A stretch of 38,611 bases of DNA, from positions 1 to 38,611 of the forward strand of contig JAGBYI010000025.1 of NCBI GenBank assembly GCA_017628845.1, given 5' to 3'. Both the position numbers and the translations under genes were made by a program. Under the pieces are notes generated by a model. The model worked only from the letters and a program-made list of their open reading frames with translations, was not told the DNA's origin and searched no databases. Below are positions 25,296 through 37,443 of this stretch, one piece after another; position 1 is the first letter of the stretch; every line of letters starts with the position of its first letter. The stretch comes from Bacteroidaceae bacterium. Lineage in GTDB: Bacteria > Bacteroidota > Bacteroidia > Bacteroidales > Bacteroidaceae.

Positions 25296-25331
25296 ACGTT
25301 GACGATATTCCTGTAGGACAATCGTCAACGT
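25296..25331 (-). terminator. Terminator of the polyene-type cluster
   Basis: ACGTTGACGAT (25296-25306) pairs perfectly with ATCGTCAACGT (25321-25331) over a 14-base loop. On the minus strand it is followed by CTTTATTTGT. It lies 41 bp after the stop of the last cluster gene. Confidence 0.85.
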
Positions 25332-25372: not shown

Positions 25373-25789
25373 TTACTTAAGCCACTTTGTTTTCCATTCC
25401 TCCACAAAGTCCGGAAGTTGAAGCATCAACTCACCGTTGGGTTCTATGAACAATTGCGTGGTTTCTCCTTCGCAACAGAGCACACCATCACTCTCACGGA
25501 ATATCTTGTATTTATAATCCAATCTTGCACCACGGCGGGGAATAAATGTGGTATGCACCACAGCAACATCTCCCATCTGCAATGACGCATAGTGACGGGA
25601 ATGAACGTCATAGATAGGGGCATAGATACCGGTTGCCTGCATTACATCATAACCCATACCAGGATAATGACGGCCAAATGACTCACGACCGTCCTCGAAA
25701 TACACCACGTAATTGCCATGCCAGACAATACGCATGGAATCTATTTCACTGAACTTGACCGGCACCCGGCAAATGTCTGTTATCTCCAC
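25373..25789 (-). CDS. Hotdog-fold acyl thioesterase (4HBT/YbgC type)
   Basis: This single-domain 4HBT thioesterase of about 138 residues has the family's active-site pattern near the start: F-S-E-I-D-S-M-R-I-V-W-H-G-N-Y, with Asp17 as catalytic acid and His24. It would release or transfer an acyl chain from CoA or the ACP, like the thioesterase of aryl-polyene clusters. There is no ATG before the catalytic Asp: translation must start at GTG (25789) or TTG (25792), a few bases after the stop of the LolA-like gene, which suggests coupling. It is the last gene before the cluster terminator. Confidence 0.88.
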   Translation of the reverse strand: MEITDICRVPVKFSEIDSMRIVWHGNYVVYFEDGRESFGRHYPGMGYDVMQATGIYAPIYDVHSRHYASLQMGDVAVVHTTFIPRRGARLDYKYKIFRESDGVLCCEGETTQLFIEPNGELMLQLPDFVEEWKTKWLK

Positions 25790-25800
25790 CAATACTGACT

Positions 25801-26385
25801 TTATTGCTTGAACTCAAAGCTACTGAAAGAATATTCTGTGTAATTCTTGCCACGACCATTCATACGCAAAGTACGAAACTCTCCCTTTTTGGAATCTAAC
25901 GTTATCTTGAAAGAGGAGAACAGCATCCTTTTCTTTTTGTCCTCGCCAATAGACGGGTCCATCTTTATGGTAATGATATCGGCCTCCTGGGTAAGCGTGA
26001 CACCAGGTATTTCGTGCAGTTTACTGCCATCGGCATTTATAATGGCCTTCAACACGGCCTGAAAAGCGACGAACTGATTGTCCTTCTTGCTACTGGTCTT
26101 GTGCTCGCGTCCACGCATAACCATAGTAAATTCGTCACCAGTCATATCCAATTGCTCCTTGCCGTCGGCCACACTTATATTCATCTTATCGGGAGCAACA
26201 ATGGTCATTGTGCCTATAAACTTCTCATCGTTGGCAACAGCTGCCTTATGATCAACACGTGTAGCAACGGCTACAACACTGCTCATCCCCTTGAACTTTC
26301 TCACCGCTTTTTGGAAATCCACTGCTTGTGCATACATGCCAACACACAAAATAGAAAGCAATAACAAGGAAAATATCTTCTTCAT
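25801..26385 (-). CDS. LolA-like periplasmic lipoprotein carrier protein
   Basis: This 194-residue exported protein has a signal peptide (KKIFSLLLLSILCVGMYAQ). The rest reads like the LolA/LolB-fold outer-membrane lipoprotein carrier family: a short helix (FQKAVRKFKGMSS), then repeated amphipathic strands ending with F-R-T-L-R-M-N. Such a protein is a regular member of aryl-polyene clusters, where it is thought to carry the lipid across the periplasm. It is not the housekeeping LolA by context. A 106-bp gap separates it from the FabG-like gene upstream, and no promoter was recognised there. Confidence 0.8.
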   Translation of the reverse strand: MKKIFSLLLLSILCVGMYAQAVDFQKAVRKFKGMSSVVAVATRVDHKAAVANDEKFIGTMTIVAPDKMNISVADGKEQLDMTGDEFTMVMRGREHKTSSKKDNQFVAFQAVLKAIINADGSKLHEIPGVTLTQEADIITIKMDPSIGEDKKKRMLFSSFKITLDSKKGEFRTLRMNGRGKNYTEYSFSSFEFKQ

Positions 26386-26491
26386 ATAATCAATTTATAT
26401 ATAAGATAATAATAATTGACATCAAACACTATGCCGTATAATGCTCCAAAGGCATTGCATACATTCCAACAATAACTTTGGCACGATTAAC

Positions 26492-27226
26492 TTAAGTGTA
26501 AAGGCCGCCGTTTATAGAAATGACATTGCCTGTAATGTATCCTGCCTGGGGGCTGCAAAGGAAAGCCACGCATTCTGCAACCTCCTCAGGTGTTCCAAAA
26601 CGATTTGCAGGTATGGTTTTCTTCAAAGCAGCCTCATCAAGACCTTCCACCATATCTGTTTTGATAAAACCGGGAGCAATAGCATTGCATGTGACATTCT
26701 TCTTGGCAACTTCCTTTGCCAATGCCTTGGTGGCGGCAATCAAACCGCCCTTGGCGGCGGAGTAGTTTGTCTGTCCCTGCATACCCATAATACCGCTCAC
26801 ACTGGCCATATTAATAATACGGCCGAACTTATGGAACTGCATGGGCATAAGTAACGGTTGAGTAACATTGTAGAAACCATTGAGACTTACTCCAAGTACA
26901 CTGATCCAATCCTCGCAAGGCATAAGACCCATAATATTGTCCTTGCGAATACCGGCATTGTTAACAAGGACCTCTATGTATTCGTCCTGGTCCTCGTGAG
27001 CCTTCTGCCATGTCTCTATGGCCATGCGGGTTTCTTCTGCATTGCTCACATCAAACTTCATAAGTTCTCCATCTGTTCCTGCATCGCGGACAAGACGCAA
27101 GGTCTCGTCTGCTGCCGCGGTATTGCCAGCATAGTTAATGAGTACATTATACCCCATCTGGGCCAATTTAACACATACGGCACGTCCGATACCACGGCTG
27201 CCACCTGTTACAAGTGCATATTTCAT
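26492..27226 (-). CDS. 3-oxoacyl-ACP reductase (FabG-like SDR)
   Basis: This 244-residue short-chain dehydrogenase reduces a 3-oxoacyl-ACP to the 3-hydroxyacyl form with NADPH. The nucleotide motif TGGSRGIG is at 7-14, NNAG at 89-92, and the catalytic Ser142, Tyr155 and Lys159 (ASVSG, NYSAAKGG). The C-terminal FLCSPQAGYITGNVISINGG is the usual FabG ending. In this cluster it would serve chain extension together with the two dehydratases and the ketosynthase. The neighbours upstream and downstream are on the same strand, 25 and 106 bp away. It is probably a cluster-specific paralogue rather than the housekeeping fabG. Confidence 0.92.
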   Translation of the reverse strand: MKYALVTGGSRGIGRAVCVKLAQMGYNVLINYAGNTAAADETLRLVRDAGTDGELMKFDVSNAEETRMAIETWQKAHEDQDEYIEVLVNNAGIRKDNIMGLMPCEDWISVLGVSLNGFYNVTQPLLMPMQFHKFGRIINMASVSGIMGMQGQTNYSAAKGGLIAATKALAKEVAKKNVTCNAIAPGFIKTDMVEGLDEAALKKTIPANRFGTPEEVAECVAFLCSPQAGYITGNVISINGGLYT

Positions 27227-27251
27227 ATTGTCTATTATAATAAAGTTTACA

Positions 27252-29966
27252 TTAGAATGACGCTTGGAAAGCGAAACGCAGACCCCAAGTCTGTGTTCCA
27301 GGACGATTATATGTCAAACGATGATAATAATCCACACTGAAGAACTTCCAGATATTGTGCAGACCTACATTCACCTCGACATATGGCAACCAACTATTCA
27401 TTACAGGTTCCCATGGCTTTTCTCCTCGACTAAGGGGAACATACTCAGCAATTCCATTTTTAGTAACCCATTCGCCTGGCATCTTATACAGGAAATCATA
27501 ACCAGGATCTGCCATCTTACTTGCAGCATCCGGATAACGCGAAGTATCATAGAACCTATTAGGATTATTCTTGTCTGTCAGATAACCCCACATCATATTG
27601 AAACCGATACATTCACGCCACTTTAACTTTTTGATAAGTGGAATACGATTAAGCAGTTTTCCGTTCAAATCCCAACGATACATCATAGTGAACGTACGGT
27701 CGTTCAGGAATTCCAAATTGCGTAGCAGAGAGAACGTATTGTCGCTTCTGACATAACTTAGGTTAGTACGGGGAATACACAACAGCTGATATGGAACAGT
27801 ATTCCACTGGAAAGCCGCACAATGGAATGCATCTATACTACCCCATGATTTAAGCCAAAAACGTTTCTTCAGCGTGAACTCGGTGTAATTGTAATTATAG
27901 TTACAGCCCAAGAAACCTTTTATACCGACGGTATGCTGTATGCCATAAATTGGAGCCTCACGGTTAGCAAGGTATCTCTTGGTCTTGGTATTCAGATACT
28001 TCACACCGGGCTGGAATTCGGCGCCTATCTGGAATTCGGTATAACATACTTTATTGGACTGAAGAACTTCATTCAACGGCACATAAGCATTGGTATTCTT
28101 CAGTACATCAGCCTGTATCTCTTCGGCCTCGTCCCACTCACGAACAGTATTGAAATACAAATCACCGGTTCCCTTATTGGTTTCACGAACAAAGGCTGCA
28201 TTAATGCGAAGTCCATTATTGAACTCCCAATCGTATTTCAGTTTGAAACGCTCATAGTATGACTGGAACCTGTTTGTAGTCCATGCGATAGCCATAAAAG
28301 CATTGTCTTTGTCGAACTGCAGGTATTTATCTGCAGGACTCTGGATGTCATTTGCGTATGACAGAGACAATGTACGGATAGGATATGCTATAACCTCCTT
28401 CTCTTTTTCATTAAAAGAGTATGTCAGTTCAAAGAAACCTTTGGGTCGACGGTCCTTGAAACCATATTTCACCCAACCCGACATAAACCAGTGCTTGTTG
28501 AAAGCACCTGTGGTCTGCGCACCTAAACGAAGATGGAAACCCTCTGCCCAATTGGAACCAAGCATGGAGAAGAAAGGTCCGATAAGAACCTTGCTGGGTT
28601 TGTTGGGATCCGTACTTGTTTCCAGATAGTTATCCAAAATCACTCGCATACCATAGATTATTGCCTTGACTGCGGGGCGGTCAACAAAACGCCGTTTCAT
28701 TTCTGCCACATTAGCCTGGGCATAACTTAATGTATCGGGACGCGATTGAACCCAGTAATTATTGTCACGGTTTTTCGCATCCTTTTCGTAACGTTCCTCA
28801 CCCATAAACTCTATTTCTGAATCAGGAATAGGATCAAAGGACCAGTCGCTGTATTGGACGTTATAGTCTACGAGAATCTTACTCAAATATGATGTCAACT
28901 TCAATTGCAACATCATCCTGTTCTTGCTGCATATCTGCTCTCCGCTTGCCAAGGATACATATTCCTGGTCAACATCCATGGCCTGAACGAAATTTATACC
29001 ACTGGCCACCGGAACTCCAAATTTGGCACGACGCACACGATAAGTACTGTCTGCCATTATATACAGATAACCACTGAATCCGAAATCCTGAGGGTTAGCA
29101 GGAGAGAACGCAACCTTAATGCATCGTTCTCCATCAAGGTCTACTGTATCACCAAGGGCATAGTGATAGAAGCGTATTGCCGAATTACCTCCAATAGGAC
29201 TGATGAAGTTGTGTTCCAGCAGAACCATTTCATCCTTATATATATCAACATCCTTAAGATTGTTCTTGAACTTTGTCTCTATGAACTCGCCTGCTGCCAA
29301 TACGTCCAAAAGACTCTCTGCATGATGTCCATGTACAATACTCTTACTCTTGTCATCACTCTTGCGATAAAGTTCGGTAGATTTTTTTTCTTCTATAGAA
29401 ATGGGAACTATAGTCTTGCCGGTTTCAGGAAAAACCTCTGCATAATTCTTCAGGAACGATTTGGTCTTAAGATTATCATTTTCCTCCAAAGTTTCTGCAG
29501 AAAACTCGTTCAAAGCAAGCATCGTTCGTGCATACTTCTCAAACGTAACATAATCGTTGGTACGCATGTCACGTGATTTCTTGGCAGCTATAACCTTCTC
29601 CATAAGCAGGACTGCAGGGTTGTTCTTACGGCTGTATTTCTTCTTCTCAGCCTTGATTACAACCTCAGACATTTCCAACGATGTTGGTTTCATCCTTACA
29701 TTTACTTGATTGTTTCGGGTGACCTCTACCTTATAGTCATTAAATCCGAAACAGTGGAAAATAAGCGTACCCTTACGGAAACGGATTCTGTATTGTCCAT
29801 CTTCTCCTACACGAACCTTTGATGCAGGATTAGATTCATACCATACAGTAGCACCTACCAATGGCATGCCGTCATCATCCGCGATAACCTTACCAGTAAG
29901 GTACTGTGCGTGCAAAGGTATAAGAACAAACAATGAAATAATGAATAGGATTTTACGCTTTATCAT
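27252..29966 (-). CDS. DUF5686 / carboxypeptidase-regulatory-like outer-membrane protein
   Basis: This 904-residue exported protein begins with a signal peptide (KRKILFIISLFVLIPLHAQ). A carboxypeptidase-regulatory-like beta-sandwich (about 20-105, GKVIADDDGMPLVGATVWYES) follows, then a long region typical of DUF5686. It ends in aromatic-rich strands closing on Phe, as outer-membrane barrels do. DUF5686 proteins have no proven function. In this operon it is the natural candidate for the outer-membrane partner of the MMPL exporter and LolA-like carrier; that role is inferred. The ATG at 29966 is used; the longer frame would overlap the FAD enzyme gene. Confidence 0.85.
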   Translation of the reverse strand: MIKRKILFIISLFVLIPLHAQYLTGKVIADDDGMPLVGATVWYESNPASKVRVGEDGQYRIRFRKGTLIFHCFGFNDYKVEVTRNNQVNVRMKPTSLEMSEVVIKAEKKKYSRKNNPAVLLMEKVIAAKKSRDMRTNDYVTFEKYARTMLALNEFSAETLEENDNLKTKSFLKNYAEVFPETGKTIVPISIEEKKSTELYRKSDDKSKSIVHGHHAESLLDVLAAGEFIETKFKNNLKDVDIYKDEMVLLEHNFISPIGGNSAIRFYHYALGDTVDLDGERCIKVAFSPANPQDFGFSGYLYIMADSTYRVRRAKFGVPVASGINFVQAMDVDQEYVSLASGEQICSKNRMMLQLKLTSYLSKILVDYNVQYSDWSFDPIPDSEIEFMGEERYEKDAKNRDNNYWVQSRPDTLSYAQANVAEMKRRFVDRPAVKAIIYGMRVILDNYLETSTDPNKPSKVLIGPFFSMLGSNWAEGFHLRLGAQTTGAFNKHWFMSGWVKYGFKDRRPKGFFELTYSFNEKEKEVIAYPIRTLSLSYANDIQSPADKYLQFDKDNAFMAIAWTTNRFQSYYERFKLKYDWEFNNGLRINAAFVRETNKGTGDLYFNTVREWDEAEEIQADVLKNTNAYVPLNEVLQSNKVCYTEFQIGAEFQPGVKYLNTKTKRYLANREAPIYGIQHTVGIKGFLGCNYNYNYTEFTLKKRFWLKSWGSIDAFHCAAFQWNTVPYQLLCIPRTNLSYVRSDNTFSLLRNLEFLNDRTFTMMYRWDLNGKLLNRIPLIKKLKWRECIGFNMMWGYLTDKNNPNRFYDTSRYPDAASKMADPGYDFLYKMPGEWVTKNGIAEYVPLSRGEKPWEPVMNSWLPYVEVNVGLHNIWKFFSVDYYHRLTYNRPGTQTWGLRFAFQASF

Positions 29967-29977
29967 ATCGTTCTTAG

Positions 29978-31399
29978 TTATTCTGGAATAATACACTTTT
30001 TGATTTCCTGACATGTATACATTGCTGTCATGGTAACTCCATGCAGACCATGCAACATAAGGCTTTGTCCTGTCATAAAAAGATTTGGTATCTGTGTCTT
30101 TGGCGAAACAATGGTCATCATCGGGTTAGTGTAATCCTTACGGAATCCGAACGCACTACCTTCAGGGGTAAGATTGTAGTCACGGTATGTAAGGGGTGTA
30201 CTGCTCCATGTATTGACAACCATAGCGCTTAGATTGGGGATAACGGTTTCTGCCAAAGTAATGCACTGGCGTTGAACCTCTAACTTCATTCTATTGTAAG
30301 AGTCTGGCCGATGGAAGAGTTTACTGTCCTCAAATTCGGCAACGGCTTCCCATTGCATTGGAGTAAGAATGTCGATATTGGTAACATCGACGCCGTCCTT
30401 AGGAATTCTTGCACTGACCATTATTCCCTTTACGACATGTTCCTTACCAACCGCCATATTCCAGCAGTCCGGTTCAGTGAAGACAAGCTTATTGTGATTG
30501 AAATAAGGCAAAGAACCTTCCCTAAGTTGCAGATGAACAGTAAACATGCCAAAAGTATTGGGTTGCATGGACATTCGTCTACGGAACATGTTCTTCATGG
30601 TTGTATTACTGGAAACCAAGGAACATGTTACTGCTGGATGTGCATTGCTGACAAAGCAATCTGCATAGTAAGATGTGCCATCACTGCATAAAGCCTGCGT
30701 AATACGTCCGTTATCTTCTTTCAGGGAAACTACCTCCTTATCTGTCAAAACCTCGCCACCATTGGCACGTATCTGTTCAATCAAACGCTGTACCAGCATG
30801 TTGCCGTCACCCTTTAGTCTCCAACTACTTTGTATAAAGGGGGTTGTGCCGTGAATAAAGGTAAACAAGGGAAGGGTTTCACGAATCAGTTCCATCTTAC
30901 ATGTAGCTGGTGCAGAAAGAACCTGTATCAGCAAGGGATCTGATATTATTGAATTCAGATATTCCCATGCATTCGTGTTCTGCATCCACAACTCGTCGGT
31001 ACACCTTAGAATTTCAGCATATGCCTCAAGTCCCTTCTCTTCATGAGGGAAATAGGATTTCATGGCCTTGATGAAATTTCCAGTACCTTGTGACCATGAA
31101 TATGCACGCCCCCCAATATGAACCTCCTCGAAACAATTTTCATCCATTCGTTCCCAAGGCAGGTTCATCAGTCCCAAACTATCAAAAGCATTGTACAGCT
31201 GACCTCCGGTTTCAAGCCCACCGACATAATGCAGACCGGTATCTAAGTGCAGATTTCCACGGCGATAGCTCTGCATACAACCACCAGGCTGATGCTGACG
31301 CTCCAGGACAAGCACCTTCTTGCCCTCCTTGCTCATCATCAAGGCAACTTCCAGACCACCAAGTCCGCTACCTATTATAATAATATCAGGTCTTGTCAT
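29978..31399 (-). CDS. Phytoene desaturase/retinol saturase-like FAD oxidoreductase
   Basis: This 473-residue flavoprotein of the CrtI/RetSat (phytoene dehydrogenase-related) family has the FAD-binding Rossmann motif at the N terminus (IIIGSGLGGLEVALMMSKEG, with the acidic end VLERQHQPGG). The C-terminal FAD motif is NLFMTGQSLMLHGLHGVTMTA. Enzymes of this family add or remove double bonds in long conjugated chains. Beside a ketosynthase, dehydratases and reductase, it may modify the polyene made by the cluster. No carotenoid genes are near. It starts only 3 bp after the MMPL gene. Confidence 0.88.
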   Translation of the reverse strand: MTRPDIIIIGSGLGGLEVALMMSKEGKKVLVLERQHQPGGCMQSYRRGNLHLDTGLHYVGGLETGGQLYNAFDSLGLMNLPWERMDENCFEEVHIGGRAYSWSQGTGNFIKAMKSYFPHEEKGLEAYAEILRCTDELWMQNTNAWEYLNSIISDPLLIQVLSAPATCKMELIRETLPLFTFIHGTTPFIQSSWRLKGDGNMLVQRLIEQIRANGGEVLTDKEVVSLKEDNGRITQALCSDGTSYYADCFVSNAHPAVTCSLVSSNTTMKNMFRRRMSMQPNTFGMFTVHLQLREGSLPYFNHNKLVFTEPDCWNMAVGKEHVVKGIMVSARIPKDGVDVTNIDILTPMQWEAVAEFEDSKLFHRPDSYNRMKLEVQRQCITLAETVIPNLSAMVVNTWSSTPLTYRDYNLTPEGSAFGFRKDYTNPMMTIVSPKTQIPNLFMTGQSLMLHGLHGVTMTAMYTCQEIKKCIIPE

Positions 31400-31402
31400 T
31401 CT

Positions 31403-33901
31403 TTACTTTGTCCTGTTCCTTTTCATCCAGTTGAAGACTGCCGGTTGGCAGACATAACTGAGAACTACTGCGCTAATCATGCCAACAAGTGTGGCAAAAC
31501 CTACACTTTTTATGGCAGGATGATTAGCAAATAACATGCTCGTCACCGTTACTATCAGTATCACTGCACTGAAAACGATAGCAGTCTTGTGGAATCGTAA
31601 CATGTCATTGGCAGCAGATTCCCTGTTTGTATCCTCAATAAGACCATTCATTACAAAGATACTGTAATCTACCCCAATACCAAAGATGAACGTGGATATG
31701 ATTATATTTATCAGGTTGAACTTCATATCAAATAAAGCCATAGCACCCAGCACTATTAACCAACTCAAAAGAATAGGTGCAAAGCCCAACATAGTATGGC
31801 GCAGGTTGAAACGGAAACTAACCAAAAGTACGAGGAAAACAAATGCCATGCTCATCCATTGAAGTACATTAAAGTCATTGTTCAACGTATCAAGTGAGTC
31901 ACGGGTATAATAAGAGGTATCCAGTATGAGCAGCTCTGGCTCCTCTGTAATAGCGTTACATATAGCCAAGAAATCGCTTCCCTCACCATAATGACGTTCT
32001 CCTCTATATTGCACATTGGTAAAACACAGGTACTTGCCGTCCCAAGTCTGTTCAATCATAGTGGAAAGATAACCTTCTGGTATAATCCCATCCTCATATA
32101 ACGGTGCAGGAGCGTATTCTGCACTTGCCATATCAAAGAATGGTTCAAAACCTTCAGGAGCAAGTCCTGCCTTAGGAGCGGTTAAAGCTATCAAAGAACG
32201 CACCTTTTCCAAACGCTCTTCTGTCCAATAATCATACCACGCATCTATCCTCTCCTGCTGCACTTGCAAGGGGATAAGTATCTGGTTAGTATGGGTATAG
32301 TGCTTAATCAGCCCCTTTTCCTTCAAAGAATCCAGTTTTGTCTCCAGTATAGAGAAGTTCTCCAGTGCCTCTTCTGCCGTATTTCCCTGTGAAGCCATGG
32401 GAACTGTATTATTACCAGTGGCTGTTTTCTGAAGATACATCTTTTCTGCATAGGCAACTTCTTCGTTGATATAGCCAAGATTGTTCATGTTGGAATCAAA
32501 CATTGTTCCCTTTACCAGATAAGCGCCTACACAGATTATGCTGACAACAGCAATAACGCCCAATAGCCATTTCTTTTCGTGAAATCTGTATGAATTGAAA
32601 GCATCTATCAGCCTGAAGGCCGTACGGTTAACCCTATTCTTCTCCATTTCCATGAGATGAGGAAGGTAAACTAAGGCAAATACAGTTGTACCTACAATAG
32701 CCAAGGCTGCAAACAGTCCGAAATCCTGCAACAGGTCGGTCTTCACAAAAAGCAGACCGATAAAGGAACCTATCGTTGTAACACATCCCAGCAACACCGG
32801 TTTCGTCTCGTCACGTAATACCTGTACTGGATCGGAAGTGTATTTATAATGCACCAGAATATGAAGGACATAACTCATGGCTACACCGAGCACAATGGCA
32901 CCAATACCAAGTGCCATCAATGAGAACTGCCCCTTAATGAAGTACATGACAGCCAATCCGAAGAATGTACCAAAGGCAACTGGAAGGAACAGCAACGGTA
33001 TGGTATTCCAGTTGCGCATACATAGGAACAAAAGTATCAGCACAAGTATTTCACTCCATGCAACTGTCCCAACAAGGTCGTCCTTTATTGTCGTTGAATT
33101 ATAATAGCCATATGCCGGTGTTCCATTGTAGCAAATGTGTATGTTCGGATACTTGTCTTTGAAAATACTTATCTGTTCGTTGATTATGTCGAACATCAAA
33201 TTTCCTTGTCCCGTATTGGTCGATGAGAACTGAGGTGAAACGAAAGCAATACAAACAGTAGAGTCAGGAACAAAGAAGTGTCTGTCTATTGTTGCTATCC
33301 CGCCAACACCATCTCCCATAAGTCCTGACATTGTACTGGCAAGAACATTACGCATACCTATAGGGTCCATCTCCAGAAGTTCGGGAAACATGGAACCAAA
33401 ATCAGTATCGAAGTCCTCAGCATTCTGTTGCATTTGTCGCAACATATGTTCCTCTGTCAGCAATGTGTCCAGAGAAGAGTATATGGATGTATCAATATAT
33501 GCAGGTATATGCTGACTCAGATAATCAATGGCATTGGGCATTACATCTTCATCCAACTGATAGAAGATATCTGAAAATACCATGTTGCTATCAAGAGCCT
33601 CATTCCGTGTTAACAGAGAGTCCACGAACTCGTCACAACACAGAATCATGTCTTTGGTGGTGGCACCATCCTTTGCTTCAAAGAAAAGGAAGGTCTTATC
33701 CTTAATTCTGAGATTGGAGAACGCCATTTTGATTGTGCCGTCTTCATTTTTAGACGAAGGCATCAACTTGTCTAAGTTCTCCTCCAAATGTATCTGTGCG
33801 GCAAACCAACCGCATACTACAAACAAAAGAACCATCGAGCACCACATCAAGGCCCGATGCTTCCTAAAATAATGATATATACTAATAAATAATCTTGTCA
33901 T
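31403..33901 (-). CDS. MMPL/RND-superfamily exporter
   Basis: This 832-residue inner-membrane transporter has the RND/MMPL layout. TM1 near residues 15-35 is followed by a large periplasmic loop to about 250, then five helices (through about 415), a short link, TM7, a second large loop (to about 665) and five last helices. The segments ALGIGAIVLGVAMSYVLH and FIFGIGVDYSIFVMNGL match the two TM4-type helices; the Asp-Tyr of the second is usual for proton-coupled MMPL proteins. In aryl-polyene clusters such an exporter is thought to move the lipid product outward. Its ATG overlaps the dehydratase stop (ATGA). Confidence 0.9.
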   Translation of the reverse strand: MTRLFISIYHYFRKHRALMWCSMVLLFVVCGWFAAQIHLEENLDKLMPSSKNEDGTIKMAFSNLRIKDKTFLFFEAKDGATTKDMILCCDEFVDSLLTRNEALDSNMVFSDIFYQLDEDVMPNAIDYLSQHIPAYIDTSIYSSLDTLLTEEHMLRQMQQNAEDFDTDFGSMFPELLEMDPIGMRNVLASTMSGLMGDGVGGIATIDRHFFVPDSTVCIAFVSPQFSSTNTGQGNLMFDIINEQISIFKDKYPNIHICYNGTPAYGYYNSTTIKDDLVGTVAWSEILVLILLFLCMRNWNTIPLLFLPVAFGTFFGLAVMYFIKGQFSLMALGIGAIVLGVAMSYVLHILVHYKYTSDPVQVLRDETKPVLLGCVTTIGSFIGLLFVKTDLLQDFGLFAALAIVGTTVFALVYLPHLMEMEKNRVNRTAFRLIDAFNSYRFHEKKWLLGVIAVVSIICVGAYLVKGTMFDSNMNNLGYINEEVAYAEKMYLQKTATGNNTVPMASQGNTAEEALENFSILETKLDSLKEKGLIKHYTHTNQILIPLQVQQERIDAWYDYWTEERLEKVRSLIALTAPKAGLAPEGFEPFFDMASAEYAPAPLYEDGIIPEGYLSTMIEQTWDGKYLCFTNVQYRGERHYGEGSDFLAICNAITEEPELLILDTSYYTRDSLDTLNNDFNVLQWMSMAFVFLVLLVSFRFNLRHTMLGFAPILLSWLIVLGAMALFDMKFNLINIIISTFIFGIGVDYSIFVMNGLIEDTNRESAANDMLRFHKTAIVFSAVILIVTVTSMLFANHPAIKSVGFATLVGMISAVVLSYVCQPAVFNWMKRNRTK

Positions 33902-34269
33902 GCCTTATCCAATTGTCCTTTCAGAATCATATATGTCTGCTTTTCGTCTGAAATAGTTGCCTGAACTCCATATCCATTAGCTGCGGGAGATAATACTATC
34001 TGCACATCTACTTCTGGGCATACCGTAGGAGTTGCCAGGGCGGTAAGACGGCACTGGCGGATGGCAGAATACCTCAACTGTTCGCCCGCAAGTAAAATGG
34101 CACATTCCTTTATTGTTTCTATATTGCAAACACCAGGACAAACCGGATCTCCGGGAAAGTGACCGTTATAGACGGTACACTCCGGTAGTATGGCCAAATG
34201 GAACTTTGCAGAAAGCCCTTCTGCACGTTCTTCGGACAATACCTGATAAAATTTATTTTCTAATAGCAT
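33898..34269 (-). CDS. FabZ-like 3-hydroxyacyl-ACP dehydratase (hotdog fold)
   Basis: This 123-residue hotdog protein has the FabZ/FabA active-site pattern N-G-H-F-P-G-D-P-V-C-P-G-V followed by an acidic residue. His37 and Glu51 are the expected catalytic pair. It would remove water from 3-hydroxyacyl-ACP to give the trans double bond. The ATG at 34269 is chosen; the open frame extends 14 codons but lacks conservation. It overlaps the MMPL gene by 4 bp (ATGA), a sign of translational coupling. This is the canonical one of two dehydratases in the cluster. Confidence 0.88.
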   Translation of the reverse strand: MLLENKFYQVLSEERAEGLSAKFHLAILPECTVYNGHFPGDPVCPGVCNIETIKECAILLAGEQLRYSAIRQCRLTALATPTVCPEVDVQIVLSPAANGYGVQATISDEKQTYMILKGQLDKA

Positions 34270-34294
34270 TAATATATATATAATGTATACGTTA

Positions 34295-34729
34295 TCAGTC
34301 TTCACGGACAAAGATTTTCATCTGTGTCTCTGCTATGGTCTCCTGTCCGGCAAGTGTGGTGCCTGTAATGATGGTCACTCCACCTACTGTGGCGCCCATA
34401 CAGATTGTGGTATCAAGTACATCCCCCAACCTAGGACGGCGATTTAGGCGAAAGTTCTTCACTTCCCCAATATACCCTACCGGAGGTTCTGTCGCTCCAT
34501 CCGCAACAGCGCGATAACCAGCAAAAGCAGATGCGCTCTGGGCAATGTGCTCTATCACGCCAGGTTCAGCCATCATGCCATCCTCTTCAAGAAAGAAATT
34601 ATCCTCCCTAACAACAAGACGGCATGTGCACTCGTCACCCACAACCTCCAGCAGCTCGTCCACCATCATGATGGGCGAGCGCTGTGGTATGAGTTCTTCA
34701 ATCTTACTGATGGCTCTCGATGTAGTCAT
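34295..34729 (-). CDS. ApeP-like hotdog dehydratase without the HFPG motif
   Basis: This 144-residue hotdog protein has the opening typical of acyl dehydratases of polyene/flexirubin clusters (ELIPQRSPIMMVDELLEV) and the helix EPGVIEHIAQSASAFAGY. Where FabZ has G-H-F-P-x-x-P this protein reads EEDGMMAEPG, so the usual catalytic His is missing; Glu60 and His61 lie on the central helix. It may act as a non-classical dehydratase or as a partner of the FabZ-like protein. The ATG at 34729 gives a 26-bp overlap with the ACP gene in another frame. Confidence 0.83.
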   Translation of the reverse strand: MTTSRAISKIEELIPQRSPIMMVDELLEVVGDECTCRLVVREDNFFLEEDGMMAEPGVIEHIAQSASAFAGYRAVADGATEPPVGYIGEVKNFRLNRRPRLGDVLDTTICMGATVGGVTIITGTTLAGQETIAETQMKIFVRED

Positions 34730-34943
34730 ACAGGTCATTGAAAGTTTTAACACTGGGCAGGTCAGACACGGGGATCTTAACCTTGAAAGTGTACTGTACA
34801 ACAGCCACCAGGTCAACCAGACTGAGGCTGTCCAACTGCAAAGTGTCGTAGATAACTGCATCGGGGGTGATAACCTCCTGCTCAACCTCAAACTCCTCAG
34901 AGAGGGTGGTTGCTACTTTCTCAATGATTTCTTCTCTTGTCAT
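34704..34943 (-). CDS. Acyl carrier protein
   Basis: This 79-residue acidic ACP has the phosphopantetheine attachment site in L-Q-L-D-S-L-S (Ser39). It carries the growing acyl chain as a thioester. The length and four-helix pattern are normal. The ATG at 34943 is preferred over a TTG two codons earlier. It sits between the ketosynthase gene (65 bp upstream) and the dehydratase gene (overlapping its end), so it belongs to the cluster rather than to primary fatty-acid synthesis. Confidence 0.9.
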   Translation of the reverse strand: MTREEIIEKVATTLSEEFEVEQEVITPDAVIYDTLQLDSLSLVDLVAVVQYTFKVKIPVSDLPSVKTFNDLYDYIESHQ

Positions 34944-35008
34944 AATCAATTAAAATTGGTTATAAAGTTAATAAATATTGGGGTATCTTGTTATTGGTGT
35001 AAAGACTT

Positions 35009-36229
35009 TTAGAGGTTCTTTACAATCAGGGTGCTGTTTGTGCCACCGAAACCGAAACTATTGCTCAGGAACATATCGAAGTGCTTCTCTGTAGTTTCCG
35101 GAATAACATTCACGCATGCTGTTTCCTCGTCCGGCTCTTCAAAGTTAATGTTGCCGGCGATAAATCCGTTCTTCATCATCAACATGCTATATACACACTC
35201 TGCGGCACCGGCAGCCCACATCTCGTGTCCTGTCTGCGATTTTGTAGAAGTAACAGGGATGGCATAGTCTCCGAATATCTGCTTGATGGCCATGGCTTCA
35301 CGACCGTCACCGGCATGTGTGCTGGTAGCGTGAGCGTTAAGGTATCCGATTTCGGTGGGATTTATGCCGCCATTGCGCAAGGCCAGTTCTAGAGAACGTG
35401 CCGGACCTGCAACATTAGGGGTGGAGATATGGTCTCCGTTTCCGCTGAAGCCCCATCCTACTATCTCAGCCAAAATAGGAGCACCACGTTTCACTGCATG
35501 CTCATAACTCTCCAGAATAATGGTTGCTGCACCACCGCCAGGAACCAGACCGTCACGGTTCTTGTCGAAGGGACGACAAGCCTTGGCAGGTTCATCCTCA
35601 CGGGTAGAGAACGCCTGAATGCCATCGAAACTTGCAACACAATACATGTTGGCTTCCTGTGCACCACCTGTAATGATACAGTCAGAAAGTCCATTCTTGA
35701 TAAGAAGGTATGCATTGCCTATAGCCAATGAAGAACTGGCACATGCTGCACTGCTTGTTAGATTGATGCCACGAAGGCGGAAGAGGCATGCCAGATTCAT
35801 GGTCACAGTACTGTTCATGCTCTGGAAAATGGCACCGCTGCCACAGGCACTGGTCTCCTTGAACTCGCGGAAACGGTCCAGAGCAACCATTGTAGCCTCT
35901 GCTACACTGTCATTTCCATAGATAATGCCTACCTCATGAGAATCAATATAGTCCTGATCCAGACGAGCATGCTCCAAGGCATCCTTTGTTGCCATATATG
36001 CGTACTGGGCCTCCTCTGGCATAAACTGGCGCATTGTACGGCTTACCAGTTTCTTGAGATCGGGTGTGGGCACATCAGCACAAAGTCCGCTACGAAATCC
36101 CATGTCCTTTCTTTCCTGAGAAAAGATAATACCACTTTTTCCATCGTACAGGCTCTGGCGCACTTCGTCCAGGGTCTGACCCAAGCAGGACCAGATTCCC
36201 ATACCTGTAATAACAACTCTGTTGCTCAT
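35009..36229 (-). CDS. Beta-ketoacyl-ACP synthase (KAS I/II type)
   Basis: This 406-residue condensing enzyme joins a malonyl unit to an acyl-ACP. The thiolase-fold triad is complete: Cys163 in TSSAACASSSLAIG, His300 in NAHATSTHAGD and His335 in KSQTGHEMWAAGA, plus the ending SNSFGFGGTNSTLIV. It is thus a catalytic ketosynthase, not a chain-length factor. It is the first of the ten packed genes of the cluster. In aryl-polyene systems a catalytic ketosynthase usually pairs with an inactive partner; none is present here. A GNAT gene ends 80 bp upstream, without a recognised promoter between. Confidence 0.92.
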   Translation of the reverse strand: MSNRVVITGMGIWSCLGQTLDEVRQSLYDGKSGIIFSQERKDMGFRSGLCADVPTPDLKKLVSRTMRQFMPEEAQYAYMATKDALEHARLDQDYIDSHEVGIIYGNDSVAEATMVALDRFREFKETSACGSGAIFQSMNSTVTMNLACLFRLRGINLTSSAACASSSLAIGNAYLLIKNGLSDCIITGGAQEANMYCVASFDGIQAFSTREDEPAKACRPFDKNRDGLVPGGGAATIILESYEHAVKRGAPILAEIVGWGFSGNGDHISTPNVAGPARSLELALRNGGINPTEIGYLNAHATSTHAGDGREAMAIKQIFGDYAIPVTSTKSQTGHEMWAAGAAECVYSMLMMKNGFIAGNINFEEPDEETACVNVIPETTEKHFDMFLSNSFGFGGTNSTLIVKNL

Positions 36230-36309: not shown

Positions 36310-37443
36310 CTAATCGATTTTCTTTCCGTAGCAACGTCTACGCTTGATTGTTTCCGGATTCATGGGTTTCCACTGGCTTAATTCTTTCACGTTATCTTCA
36401 AGTTGCGGACCGGTTTCTGCATACTTGAACCCTTTCTTATTGTAAATTGGTATAAGGTCATCAAATATAAGCGCGTTAACACCCAGACCTTGCATGTCCG
36501 GACGAACAGCAATAAGCATCATATTAGCTGTTTCTTCATGCTTAATCTTCATTGCCTTGAGAATATGCCACCATCCGAACGGAAACAACCTGCCTTTGGA
36601 TTTCTGCAATGCTTCGGACATGCTCGCCATGGTTACGGCAGCAGCCACGAGTTCGCCTTTCTCATTCTCCACAAACGGTATCAGGTCCATATCAGCAAGC
36701 GGAAGATACATCTTCAGGAAAAAGTCTATCTGACGAGGCGTAAAGGAACTGTAACCAAACAGAGGAGCATAAGCCTGATTCATTAGATCAAAGAGTCTAT
36801 GACCCTCTCCTTGATACGCCTCCTTAAGAGTAACCTTCTTCACTGTCAGTCCGTACATCTCCTTGCTCAAGCGAGCCACACGGGCATATCTGGCAGGAAC
36901 TTCCTTAGGTATTTCCACCCTTATCTGCAACCAATCCGTCACTTTCGCATATCCATGAGCCTCCAAATGCTTGGGATAATAAGGATAATTGTAGATATCT
37001 ATCATGGTACCCATACGGTCAAAATCTTCAACAAGCATACCTTCCTTATCAAAGTCCGTAATGCCCAAAGGTCCCTGAACCTCATCCATACCACGCTCCC
37101 TACCCCATTCTTCAACGGCATCAAGCATAGCCTTGCTTACCTCTAAATCATCAATAAAATCAATATATCCGAAGCGAACAACATTGGTTTTCCACTTCTT
37201 ATTGGCGCGACTATTGATAATTCCTGCAATACGGCCTACCACAACACCGTCCTTTTCTGCAACAAACGCCTGGACTTCCGTAAAGGACAAACCATGGTTC
37301 TTGTCAGGATTGAAACTGCCACGAACATCACTGGCCATTTCAGGAACGAACTGTTTGTTCCCAGCATACAGTCTTAAAGGAAAGTCTACAAAAGCATCCA
37401 GTTCCTTCTTTGTCGTTACCTTTTTAACACTGACATTTCCCAT
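36310..37443 (-). CDS. YghO-like GNAT-family N-acetyltransferase
   Basis: This 377-residue protein resembles the YghO group of GNAT-related proteins. The N-terminal part contains LRLYAGNKQFVPEM, FVAEKDGVVVGRIAGIIN and QGPLGITDFDKEGMLVEDF. The C-terminal part has a GNAT-like acetyl-CoA segment (MLIAVRPDMQGLGVNALIFDDL) and ends in basic residues. The substrate is unknown. It has a clear promoter and is on the same strand as the polyene-type cluster, so its transcript may continue into the ketosynthase gene. It is not a usual cluster member, and its link to the pathway is only positional. Confidence 0.85.
   Translation of the reverse strand: MGNVSVKKVTTKKELDAFVDFPLRLYAGNKQFVPEMASDVRGSFNPDKNHGLSFTEVQAFVAEKDGVVVGRIAGIINSRANKKWKTNVVRFGYIDFIDDLEVSKAMLDAVEEWGRERGMDEVQGPLGITDFDKEGMLVEDFDRMGTMIDIYNYPYYPKHLEAHGYAKVTDWLQIRVEIPKEVPARYARVARLSKEMYGLTVKKVTLKEAYQGEGHRLFDLMNQAYAPLFGYSSFTPRQIDFFLKMYLPLADMDLIPFVENEKGELVAAAVTMASMSEALQKSKGRLFPFGWWHILKAMKIKHEETANMMLIAVRPDMQGLGVNALIFDDLIPIYNKKGFKYAETGPQLEDNVKELSQWKPMNPETIKRRRCYGKKID

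What the first reader, a model, noticed from the sequence alone, without database searches (positions are those of the whole stretch)
25373..36229. Compact single-ketosynthase aryl-polyene/flexirubin-like gene cluster
Seen directly: ten consecutive minus-strand genes with tiny gaps or overlaps encode ketosynthase, ACP, two hotdog dehydratases, MMPL exporter, CrtI/RetSat-like FAD enzyme, DUF5686 protein, FabG-like reductase, LolA-like carrier and thioesterase, ended by a terminator. Known: ketosynthases, ACP, dehydratases, ketoreductase, thioesterase, LolA-like carrier and MMPL exporter are the shared core of aryl-polyene and flexirubin clusters. Unusual here: only one ketosynthase, no chain-length partner, no aromatic starter ligase or ammonia-lyase, no acyl- or glycosyltransferase, and a desaturase-like FAD enzyme in the middle. 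The product could be a non-aryl polyenoic or oxidised acyl lipid placed in the envelope.
Basis: partly seen in the sequence, partly recalled or inferred. Interest (0 to 1): 0.72.

Follow-up and report, generated by a model that had tools for sequence, protein, structure and literature searches.

The report
Stand-alone polyene fatty-acid gene cluster
A gut-type bacterium carries one half of a known pigment-making gene cluster as a compact set of genes of its own, without the parts that add the aromatic end, which suggests that related gut bacteria make a non-aromatic polyene lipid that we did not find described.

Summary
The ten minus-strand genes are intact and end at a hairpin terminator. An eleventh, a GNAT acyltransferase just upstream, belongs with them. 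The ketosynthase is neither primary FabF nor the ApeO/ApeC type: it is 59-63% identical to the FabB-like ketosynthase ('FlxC type', named by gene order) of flexirubin clusters, whose neighbouring ACP, KR, DH1 and TE it also matches. The FAD enzyme is shared with many Bacteroidota flexirubin clusters. So this is the FlxC/ApeR half of such a cluster without the aryl half. The layout is conserved in Bacteroidales. In 14 of 23 compact-cluster genomes searched, FabF and one such ketosynthase are the only ketosynthases. In four others, one a congener, a second multi-ketosynthase set exists, but the only FlxC-type ketosynthase and FAD enzyme are in the compact cluster. Most likely it builds a short, non-aryl conjugated polyenoic acyl chain on a primary acyl-ACP, modifies it with the FAD enzyme and sends it to the envelope. 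The product is inferred, and with 84.6% of this genome at hand a missing aryl half cannot be excluded. New variant of a known kind.

The parts
36310..37443 (-). GNAT-family acyltransferase (377 aa), first gene of the unit, 80 nt upstream of the KS
   Evidence: PF00583 23.3 bits; 27 of 27 aligned members match that family at E <= 0.01; linked in 43 of 64 loci
35009..36229 (-). FabB-like ketosynthase of the FlxC/ApeR type; C163, H300, H335 present
   Evidence: 59-63% identical to the KS of multi-KS clusters in G177, G262, G345
34704..34943 (-). acyl carrier protein, of the type that sits beside the FlxC-type KS
   Evidence: PF00550; 53% to that ACP in G177; 29% to the genome's own AcpP, 14-28% to ApeE-type ACPs
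34295..34729 (-). hotdog dehydratase DH1 (ApeP-like; Glu motif, no FabZ-type His by eye)
33898..34269 (-). hotdog dehydratase DH2 (ApeI-like; GHFPG His motif)
   Evidence: PF07977 over cut-off, PF22818 below cut-off
31403..33901 (-). MMPL/RND-type lipid exporter
   Evidence: PF03176; weak HpnN likeness; 30% to the MMPL of the G177 cluster
29978..31399 (-). FAD oxidoreductase of the CrtI/CrtD/carotenoid-isomerase superfamily
   Evidence: compact-locus FAD enzymes split from those of multi-KS clusters
27252..29966 (-). DUF5686 protein with CarboxypepD_reg-like domain and signal-peptide-like N terminus (by eye); probably outer-membrane; start codon not certain (30014 also possible)
   Evidence: PF18939, PF13715
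26492..27226 (-). ketoreductase, FlxB equivalog
   Evidence: NF053542 385.5 bits, over the cut-off of 340
25801..26385 (-). LolA2-like periplasmic carrier (weak match)
   Evidence: NF053544 24.4 bits, below the cut-off of 125; counterparts 107 and 135.5 bits
25373..25792 (-). hotdog thioesterase (4HBT/YbgC; ApeK-like)
   Evidence: PF13279; 42% to the TE of the G177 cluster
25296..25331 (-). hairpin terminator, 11-bp stem, T-rich tail
   Evidence: -27 kcal/mol for the folded stretch, z -5.5

Best explanation
The unit is a stand-alone FlxC/ApeR module of the flexirubin/aryl-polyene family. Shown by sequence: the KS, ACP, KR, DH1 and TE are counterparts of the module around the FabB-like KS in flexirubin clusters; the KS-CLF pair, starter ACP, aryl ligase and ammonia-lyase are not in the cluster, and no third ketosynthase, FlxY over cut-off or FlxA match was found in the genome as held. 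Inferred mechanism: the KS takes a non-aryl acyl-ACP (probably from primary fatty-acid synthesis) and extends it a few times with malonyl units on the cluster ACP. The FlxB-type KR and the DH1/DH2 pair turn each keto group into a trans double bond; the cluster encodes no enoyl reductase, so conjugated double bonds build up (about four or five, by analogy with ApeR in vitro). The carotenoid-desaturase-like FAD enzyme isomerises or further desaturates this chain. TE edits or releases it, GNAT transfers it to an acceptor, and MMPL, LolA and perhaps DUF5686 place the lipid in the envelope.
For: KS tree: window KS in a 34-row clade (100/100) with the FabB-like KS of multi-KS clusters (G177, G262), next to E. 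coli FabB and then ApeR; own FabF groups with E. coli FabF, ApeO types are apart. Identities to the G177 cluster: KR 62, KS 59, ACP 53, TE 42, DH1 39, FAD 33, MMPL 30, DH2 27.5%. G262, with FlxA 900 bits (cut-off 700) and FlxY 734.5 (cut-off 520), has KR-KS-ACP-(weak ApeJ-like)-FAD in a row. Best hits among E. coli APE proteins: ApeR, ApeF, ApeP, ApeI, ApeQ, ApeK, ApeM. In 14 of 23 genomes FabF and one FlxC-type KS are the only KSs. In G180, G050, G088 and G152 the only FlxC-type KS and the only strong FAD match lie in the compact cluster. The Tyr135 that stacks the aryl group in A. baumannii ApeR is Ile134 here; the Phe118 position is Leu. ApeR makes short polyenes in vitro, with bands presumed to be five double bonds (PMC8358021 passages). 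E. coli apeR and apeF deletions still make aryl polyene acid (PMC8253772 passages).
Against: No product is known. Ile in place of Tyr135 also occurs in FlxC-type KSs of clusters that carry aryl genes, and Phe202 is kept (Phe201), so the substrate is not settled. The KS is nearer to FabB (41%) than to ApeR (35%), and the ACP is no closer to ApeF (28%) than to E. coli AcpP (32%), so ApeR is an analogy. [quoted passage not shown] Six relatives (L041, L045, L089, L091, L098, L100) show no DH, KR, TE, MMPL or LolA in the cluster. MMPL is unmatched genome-wide in 2 of 12 genomes and leaves only weak RND hits in 6 more. The FAD enzyme is absent from 2 of 7 FlxY stretches fetched outside the family, one cut by a contig end, and the words FAD, phytoene and desaturase do not occur in the main text of PMC3992019.
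Confidence: 0.6

Rival explanations
1. Half of a split flexirubin pathway: the aryl half lies elsewhere in the real genome and was lost in assembly, so the compact genes serve an aryl polyene made in trans.
For: G180, same genus (FAD 75%), has a separate locus with FlxA, FlxJ-type methyltransferase, ApeO-type KS, CLF-like protein, ApeE-type ACP and FlxY, and no hit there for a FlxC-type KS, its ACP, KR, TE or FAD. G050 is similar but its aryl locus keeps a KR; G088's runs into a contig end; G152's was not fetched. The window's genome is only 84.6% complete.
Against: No FlxA match (no positive control), no FlxY over cut-off, no third KS. The genome of L102 (KS 98.8% identical; completeness not told) has two KS matches, as does P. 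plebeius DSM 17135, and ten genomes at least 98% complete.
Confidence: 0.12
2. The module makes a non-polyene special acyl chain (saturated, hydroxylated or mono-unsaturated), because primary enoyl reductase acts on its intermediates; GNAT acylates an envelope amine with it, and the FAD enzyme does other chemistry.
For: GNAT linkage in 43 of 64 loci; a minimal form with KS, ACP, FAD, GNAT and DUF5686 only, where in G166 a KR (58%) lies on another contig.
Against: KR, dehydratases and exporter are those of polyene clusters; the FAD enzyme belongs to the superfamily that acts on carotenoid polyenes.
Confidence: 0.2
3. A decaying remnant of a flexirubin cluster with no function.
For: Parts are missing relative to the full cluster.
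Against: All frames intact; the same set recurs across Bacteroidales; a 100/100 branch separates compact FAD enzymes from those of multi-KS clusters.
Confidence: 0.03
4. A second primary fatty-acid synthesis operon (FabB-like).
For: KS scores highest with FabB in the PDB and in NCBIfam, though below the NCBIfam cut-off (372.9 against 630).
Against: 41% to FabB against 59-63% to the KS of flexirubin clusters; primary FabF and its ACP lie elsewhere; the KR passes the FlxB cut-off.
Confidence: 0.03

Closest known systems
Flexirubin cluster of Bacteroidota (FlxA-FlxY; Chitinophaga pinensis, Flavobacterium johnsoniae; PMC3992019, section 4 part 1 read)
   Same: FlxB-type KR over cut-off; FabB-like KS, its ACP, DH1, DH2, TE, MMPL, LolA-like carrier and, in many such clusters, an FAD enzyme have counterparts. 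Compared with clusters found by FlxY/FlxA models (G177, G262, G345), not with the two named organisms
   Different: no TAL (FlxA), ligase (FlxY), ApeO-type KS, CLF, starter ACP, glycosyltransferase or methyltransferase; has GNAT and DUF5686
Aryl polyene (APE) cluster of E. coli CFT073 (Ape letters assigned by recalled gene order)
   Same: best hits ApeR, ApeF, ApeP, ApeI, ApeQ, ApeK, ApeM
   Different: no counterparts of ApeO, ApeC, ApeE, ApeH, ApeB, ApeD, ApeJ in the compact cluster; has an FAD enzyme that this APE cluster lacks
ApeR, the second FabB-like ketosynthase of APE clusters (PMC8358021, passages read)
   Same: KAS I-like class; in vitro makes short polyenes
   Different: Tyr135 and Phe118, tied to aryl binding, are Ile and Leu here; no ApeO-ApeC partner here; only 35% identical to E. 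coli ApeR
KS-CLF polyene synthases such as ishigamide (named in PMC8358021)
   Same: reducing type II polyene logic with KR and DH
   Different: no chain-length factor here
CrtI/CrtD/carotenoid isomerase family
   Same: N- and C-terminal stretches match the profiles
   Different: far below the curated cut-offs; no phytoene/squalene synthase (PF00494) match in the genome

Membership tests
Flexirubin / aryl polyene cluster | KS-CLF heterodimer (ApeO-ApeC type) | tested here: not met
   only the FabB-like KS and FabF in the genome as held; one KS in the fetched stretch of 64 of 64 compact loci (loci selected by a FlxC-type KS and FAD)
Flexirubin / aryl polyene cluster | aryl starter supply and activation (FlxA ammonia-lyase, FlxY/ApeH ligase) | tested here: not met
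   no FlxA match (no positive control); best FlxY match about 220 bits against cut-off 520; genome 84.6% complete
Flexirubin / aryl polyene cluster | starter-loading ACP (ApeE type) | tested here: not met
   the cluster's single ACP is 51-53% to the FlxC-partner ACP of G177 and 14-28% to ApeE types; the rest of the genome was not searched for it
Flexirubin / aryl polyene cluster | FabB-like second KS (FlxC/ApeR type) | tested here: met
   nearer to flexirubin-cluster KSs than to E. coli ApeR
Flexirubin / aryl polyene cluster | dedicated KR and dehydratase pair | tested here: met
   FlxB 385.5 bits over 340; DH1/DH2 best hits ApeP/ApeI and flexirubin-cluster DHs
Flexirubin / aryl polyene cluster | MMPL exporter and LolA-type carrier | tested here: met
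   LolA weak in this copy; over 64 loci LolA was called only where MMPL was (32 of 36 versus 0 of 28)
Flexirubin / aryl polyene cluster | glycosyl/acyltransferases (ApeJ, ApeD, GT2-DUF2062) | tested here: not met
   none in the cluster; GNAT instead
Flexirubin / aryl polyene cluster | aryl polyene product | not testable with these tools
   needs lipid chemistry
Primary type II fatty acid synthesis | KS groups with primary FabF | tested here: not met
   own FabF groups with E. coli FabF and is 33% identical to this KS
Carotenoid pathway | phytoene/squalene synthase | tested here: not met
   PF00494: none in own genome as held, while 7 of 14 controls ring
Bacterial ceramide synthase (idea for the GNAT gene) | sequence match to bCerS or linkage to serine palmitoyltransferase | not tested
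   no bCerS sequence was at hand; GNAT has no NCBIfam match and no significant PDB match

The most novel reading that the evidence does not exclude
Gut and rumen Bacteroidales make an undescribed class of non-aryl conjugated-polyene envelope lipids with a stand-alone KS-ACP-FAD core, in which a carotenoid-desaturase relative works on a fatty-acyl polyene. The full flexirubin cluster would then be this lipid module joined to a second, aryl module.
Probability: 0.4. Interest if true: 0.75.

Novelty: new variant of a known kind. Interest (0 to 1): 0.6.

Why it matters
PMC8358021 states that the role of the two ketosynthases in aryl-polyene biosynthesis is unclear (abstract). Here evolution has separated them: one half stands alone in many gut-type Bacteroidales, and in a few genomes the two sets sit at different places. 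That makes the role of the FlxC/ApeR ketosynthase, its ACP and the FAD enzyme directly testable, also in a named strain, Phocaeicola plebeius DSM 17135, which has the compact cluster and two ketosynthases. If the product is a non-aryl polyene lipid, an envelope lipid of gut Bacteroidales has been overlooked, perhaps because cluster finders ask for two ketosynthases (recalled, not tested here).

Tried and rejected
Primary fatty-acid operon: rejected by the KS tree and the FlxB-type KR. Carotenoid pathway: no phytoene synthase. FAD enzyme as an insertion unique to this locus: rejected, since multi-KS flexirubin-type clusters have one too. Recent decay of a flexirubin cluster: disfavoured. GNAT as bacterial ceramide synthase: idea not tested; passages read gave no sequence, and PDB searches gave nothing significant. 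A missing start codon for DH1 was suspected and resolved (ATG at 34729).

Limits of the counts; of 121 loci, 57 were set aside (34 without the compact core, 21 with short flanks, 2 without FAD); the 64 kept were selected by a FlxC-type KS of at least 600 bits and an FAD match, and flanks are about 10 kb, so 'one KS' holds for those stretches and is partly a result of the selection; the genome-wide test is. L035 and L080 are the same contig, so at most 63 are distinct. The overlap filter dropped hits seen (ACP in the window, L100, L114, L130; LolA in L104), so ACP (59) and LolA (32) are lower bounds; 23 genomes chosen from 33 with an FAD match of at least 300 bits (my count from its table); nine of the ten left out are under 90% complete. 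In G053 the second KS is on a different contig from the FAD gene, whose contig ends there. That four second loci (G038, G194, G118, G168) have an own FlxC-type KS is judged from PF00109 scores only; for G182 it is confirmed.

Literature: of ten searches, eight bore on this cluster and two on ceramide synthase. No listed title or abstract describes a single-ketosynthase flexirubin-like cluster. Passages do report APE-like clusters in Bacteroidetes and a flexirubin homologue in Prevotella oralis (PMC6469967) and 268 flexirubin-type clusters in 252 Bacteroidetes strains (PMC9248904); surveys of rumen genomes also mention arylpolyene (listing only). Compact clusters may have been counted in such surveys. 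Only open-licence papers are held.
Full report
Observation. The window carries ten contiguous, intact minus-strand genes from 36229 down to 25373, with small gaps or overlaps, followed by an 11-bp hairpin terminator. Their families are ketosynthase, ACP, two hotdog proteins, MMPL, CrtI-like FAD enzyme, DUF5686, KR, a weakly LolA-like protein and a hotdog thioesterase. The KR passes the NCBIfam cut-off for FlxB of flexirubin synthesis (385.5 against 340 bits). A GNAT gene 80 nt upstream on the same strand (36310-37443) belongs to the unit by synteny. The genes of the rest of the window that I scanned are housekeeping or ordinary; no tRNA and no Rfam family was found.

One ketosynthase in the genome. 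PF00109 finds two ketosynthases in this 2.67-Mb, 84.6% complete genome: FabF, beside a primary-type ACP, and this one. There is no FlxA match (which had no positive control), no FlxY over its cut-off (two weaker matches at about 203 and 220 bits) and no phytoene/squalene synthase.

Conservation. In 251 genomes of the family, 98 have some FAD match; by my count 33 have one of at least 300 bits, the level seen in compact clusters. I fetched 40 neighbourhoods, and a named-genome scan gave 80 loci, the best of 436: Prevotella-type and other Bacteroidales MAGs, many from rumen or gut by their titles, with Phocaeicola plebeius DSM 17135, Bacteroides sp. An322, Tannerella, Paludibacteraceae and Salinivirgaceae. 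With the window that makes 121 loci; 64 had the compact core and enough flank. In their stretches all 64 have one ketosynthase and no FlxY-family gene in the operon (partly a result of selection, see Tried and rejected). GNAT is linked in 43 of 64, a PlsC-like acyltransferase in 12 of 64 (identified). LolA was called only where MMPL was (32 of 36 against 0 of 28), which fits a shared export role. The loci are related by descent, so the Fisher values overstate independence. In 12 genomes searched for MMPL, two have no match and six have only weak RND hits, so the exporter can be absent from the whole genome.

What the parts are. The KS tree puts the window KS in a 34-row clade (100/100) that includes the FabB-like KS of multi-KS clusters in G177 and G262; E. 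coli FabB and then ApeR branch next to it (both on long branches), while own FabF pairs with E. coli FabF and ApeO-type KSs lie apart. I call this KS 'FlxC type' from its place after FlxA and FlxB in G262 and the flexirubin gene names in PMC3992019; the C. pinensis protein itself was not compared. Identities are 59-63% to the KSs of G177, G262 and G345, 41% to FabB, 35% to ApeR and 33% to own FabF. The ACP is 51-53% identical to the ACP next to that KS in G177, 29% to own AcpP, 32% to E. coli AcpP, 28% to ApeF and 14-28% to ApeE types. KR 62%, TE 42%, DH1 39%, FAD 33%, MMPL 30% and DH2 27.5% complete the match to G177; GNAT, DUF5686 and LolA gave no BLAST match there, although a profile finds a LolA-like gene. 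G262, whose cluster has FlxA at 900 bits (cut-off 700) and FlxY at 734.5 (cut-off 520), has the row KR-KS-ACP-(weakly ApeJ-like protein)-FAD. The FAD enzyme was seen in 5 of 7 FlxY stretches fetched outside the family. Against E. coli CFT073 APE, best hits are ApeR, ApeF, ApeP, ApeI, ApeQ, ApeK and ApeM (Ape letters assigned to the locus tags from memory). That APE cluster has no FAD match.

A natural separation of two sets. In 23 compact-bearing genomes, 14 have exactly two ketosynthase matches (ten of them at least 98% complete) and nine have four to six (several of these are fragments of one KS or CLF). All 28 genomes (27 with FlxY over cut-off, plus G152) have a FlxC-type KS of at least 570 bits. 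In 24 it lies within the multi-KS cluster (in G114 on another contig than FlxY; G182 has a second, compact copy). In G180, G050, G088 and G152 the only copy is the compact cluster's, on another contig or, in G088, about 110 kb from FlxY; and their only strong FAD match is the compact one too. The G180 aryl locus, read whole, has FlxA, a methyltransferase, an acyltransferase, DH1, ApeO-type KS, a CLF-like protein, ApeE-type ACP, LolA, DH2, GT, FlxY and MMPL, with no hit for the FlxC-type KS, its ACP, KR, TE or FAD: parts that the compact cluster has. G050's keeps a KR; G088's runs into a contig end; G152's was not fetched and has no FlxY over cut-off. So KS and FAD travel together. One 100/100 branch separates 18 FAD enzymes of compact-type loci from 14 of multi-KS clusters, which speaks against recent decay. 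Among genomes reached through named loci, that of L102 (KS 98.8% identical), P. plebeius DSM 17135 and Bacteroides sp. An322 have two ketosynthase matches; L108 has five, L118 four, L073 one; L149 was not held. An322 has the same coordinates as G140 and is not independent of it.

Mechanism. Type II polyene logic (KS, KR, DH, no enoyl reductase) gives conjugated double bonds, as known for APE. ApeR is reported to make polyenes of up to four double bonds, and bands presumed to be five in PMC8358021 (passages). The A. baumannii residue Tyr135, which stacks the aryl group, is Ile134 in the window KS, and the Phe118 position is Leu, while Phe202 is kept; numbering was checked on chain 7f27. FlxC-type KSs of clusters with aryl genes also have Ile, so this is support, not proof. 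In E. coli, apeR and apeF deletions still make aryl polyene acid (PMC8253772, passages), which frees these genes for another chain; against this, the same paper says that ApeR was required for initiation in vitro, and that the apeR mutant keeps the main lipid peak. I recall, without having seen the text here, that the Xenorhabdus APE lipid contains a second, non-aryl conjugated acyl chain (preprint 10.1101/2020.12.19.423268; only its title was seen, in a reference list). That would be a natural product of an ApeR-type module. The steps after chain building (FAD chemistry, acceptor, export) are inference.

Limits. No chemistry is available. The genome is incomplete and in 223 contigs. The literature library is partial, and surveys may have counted such clusters under aryl polyene or flexirubin.

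Verdict. A real, conserved, stand-alone FlxC/ApeR-type module; most likely a non-aryl polyenoic lipid pathway. New variant of a known kind; interest 0.6.

Noticed in passing
L041, L045, L089, L091, L098, L100 (GNAT-KS-ACP-FAD-DUF5686): A minimal form of the cluster without hits for dehydratases, KR, TE, MMPL or LolA; in G166 (L045) a KR 58% identical lies on another contig. KS, ACP and FAD look like the irreducible core.
   Followed up: partly
G000:C13:6736-7887 (L159): A second copy of the GNAT family (46% identical) sits next to genes that look like parE and coaD in the same genome (names by eye).
   Followed up: no
L036, L037, L077, L084, L086, L087 downstream of the cluster: LPG_synthase_TM (PF03706) and CDP-alcohol phosphatidyltransferase (PF01066) families recur near DUF5686, with and without MMPL and LolA in the cluster; possibly a lipid head-group or transport route (one member of each scanned).
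   Followed up: no
L079, L084, L087, L094, L101, L103, L113, L150 upstream of GNAT: A gene of one family, AraC-type regulator in the member scanned (L079), precedes the cluster in eight loci.
   Followed up: no
L069, L070, L072 and second loci of G194 and G118: Multi-KS clusters with two FAD enzymes in tandem instead of one.
   Followed up: no
window 34704-34729: ACP and DH1 overlap by 26 nt; many relatives show an overlapping ATGA or a few bases between the genes, a sign of translational coupling.
   Followed up: yes
L053 and L115 (same genome, Bacteroides sp. An322): DUF5686 appears as two separate frames beside the compact cluster.
   Followed up: no
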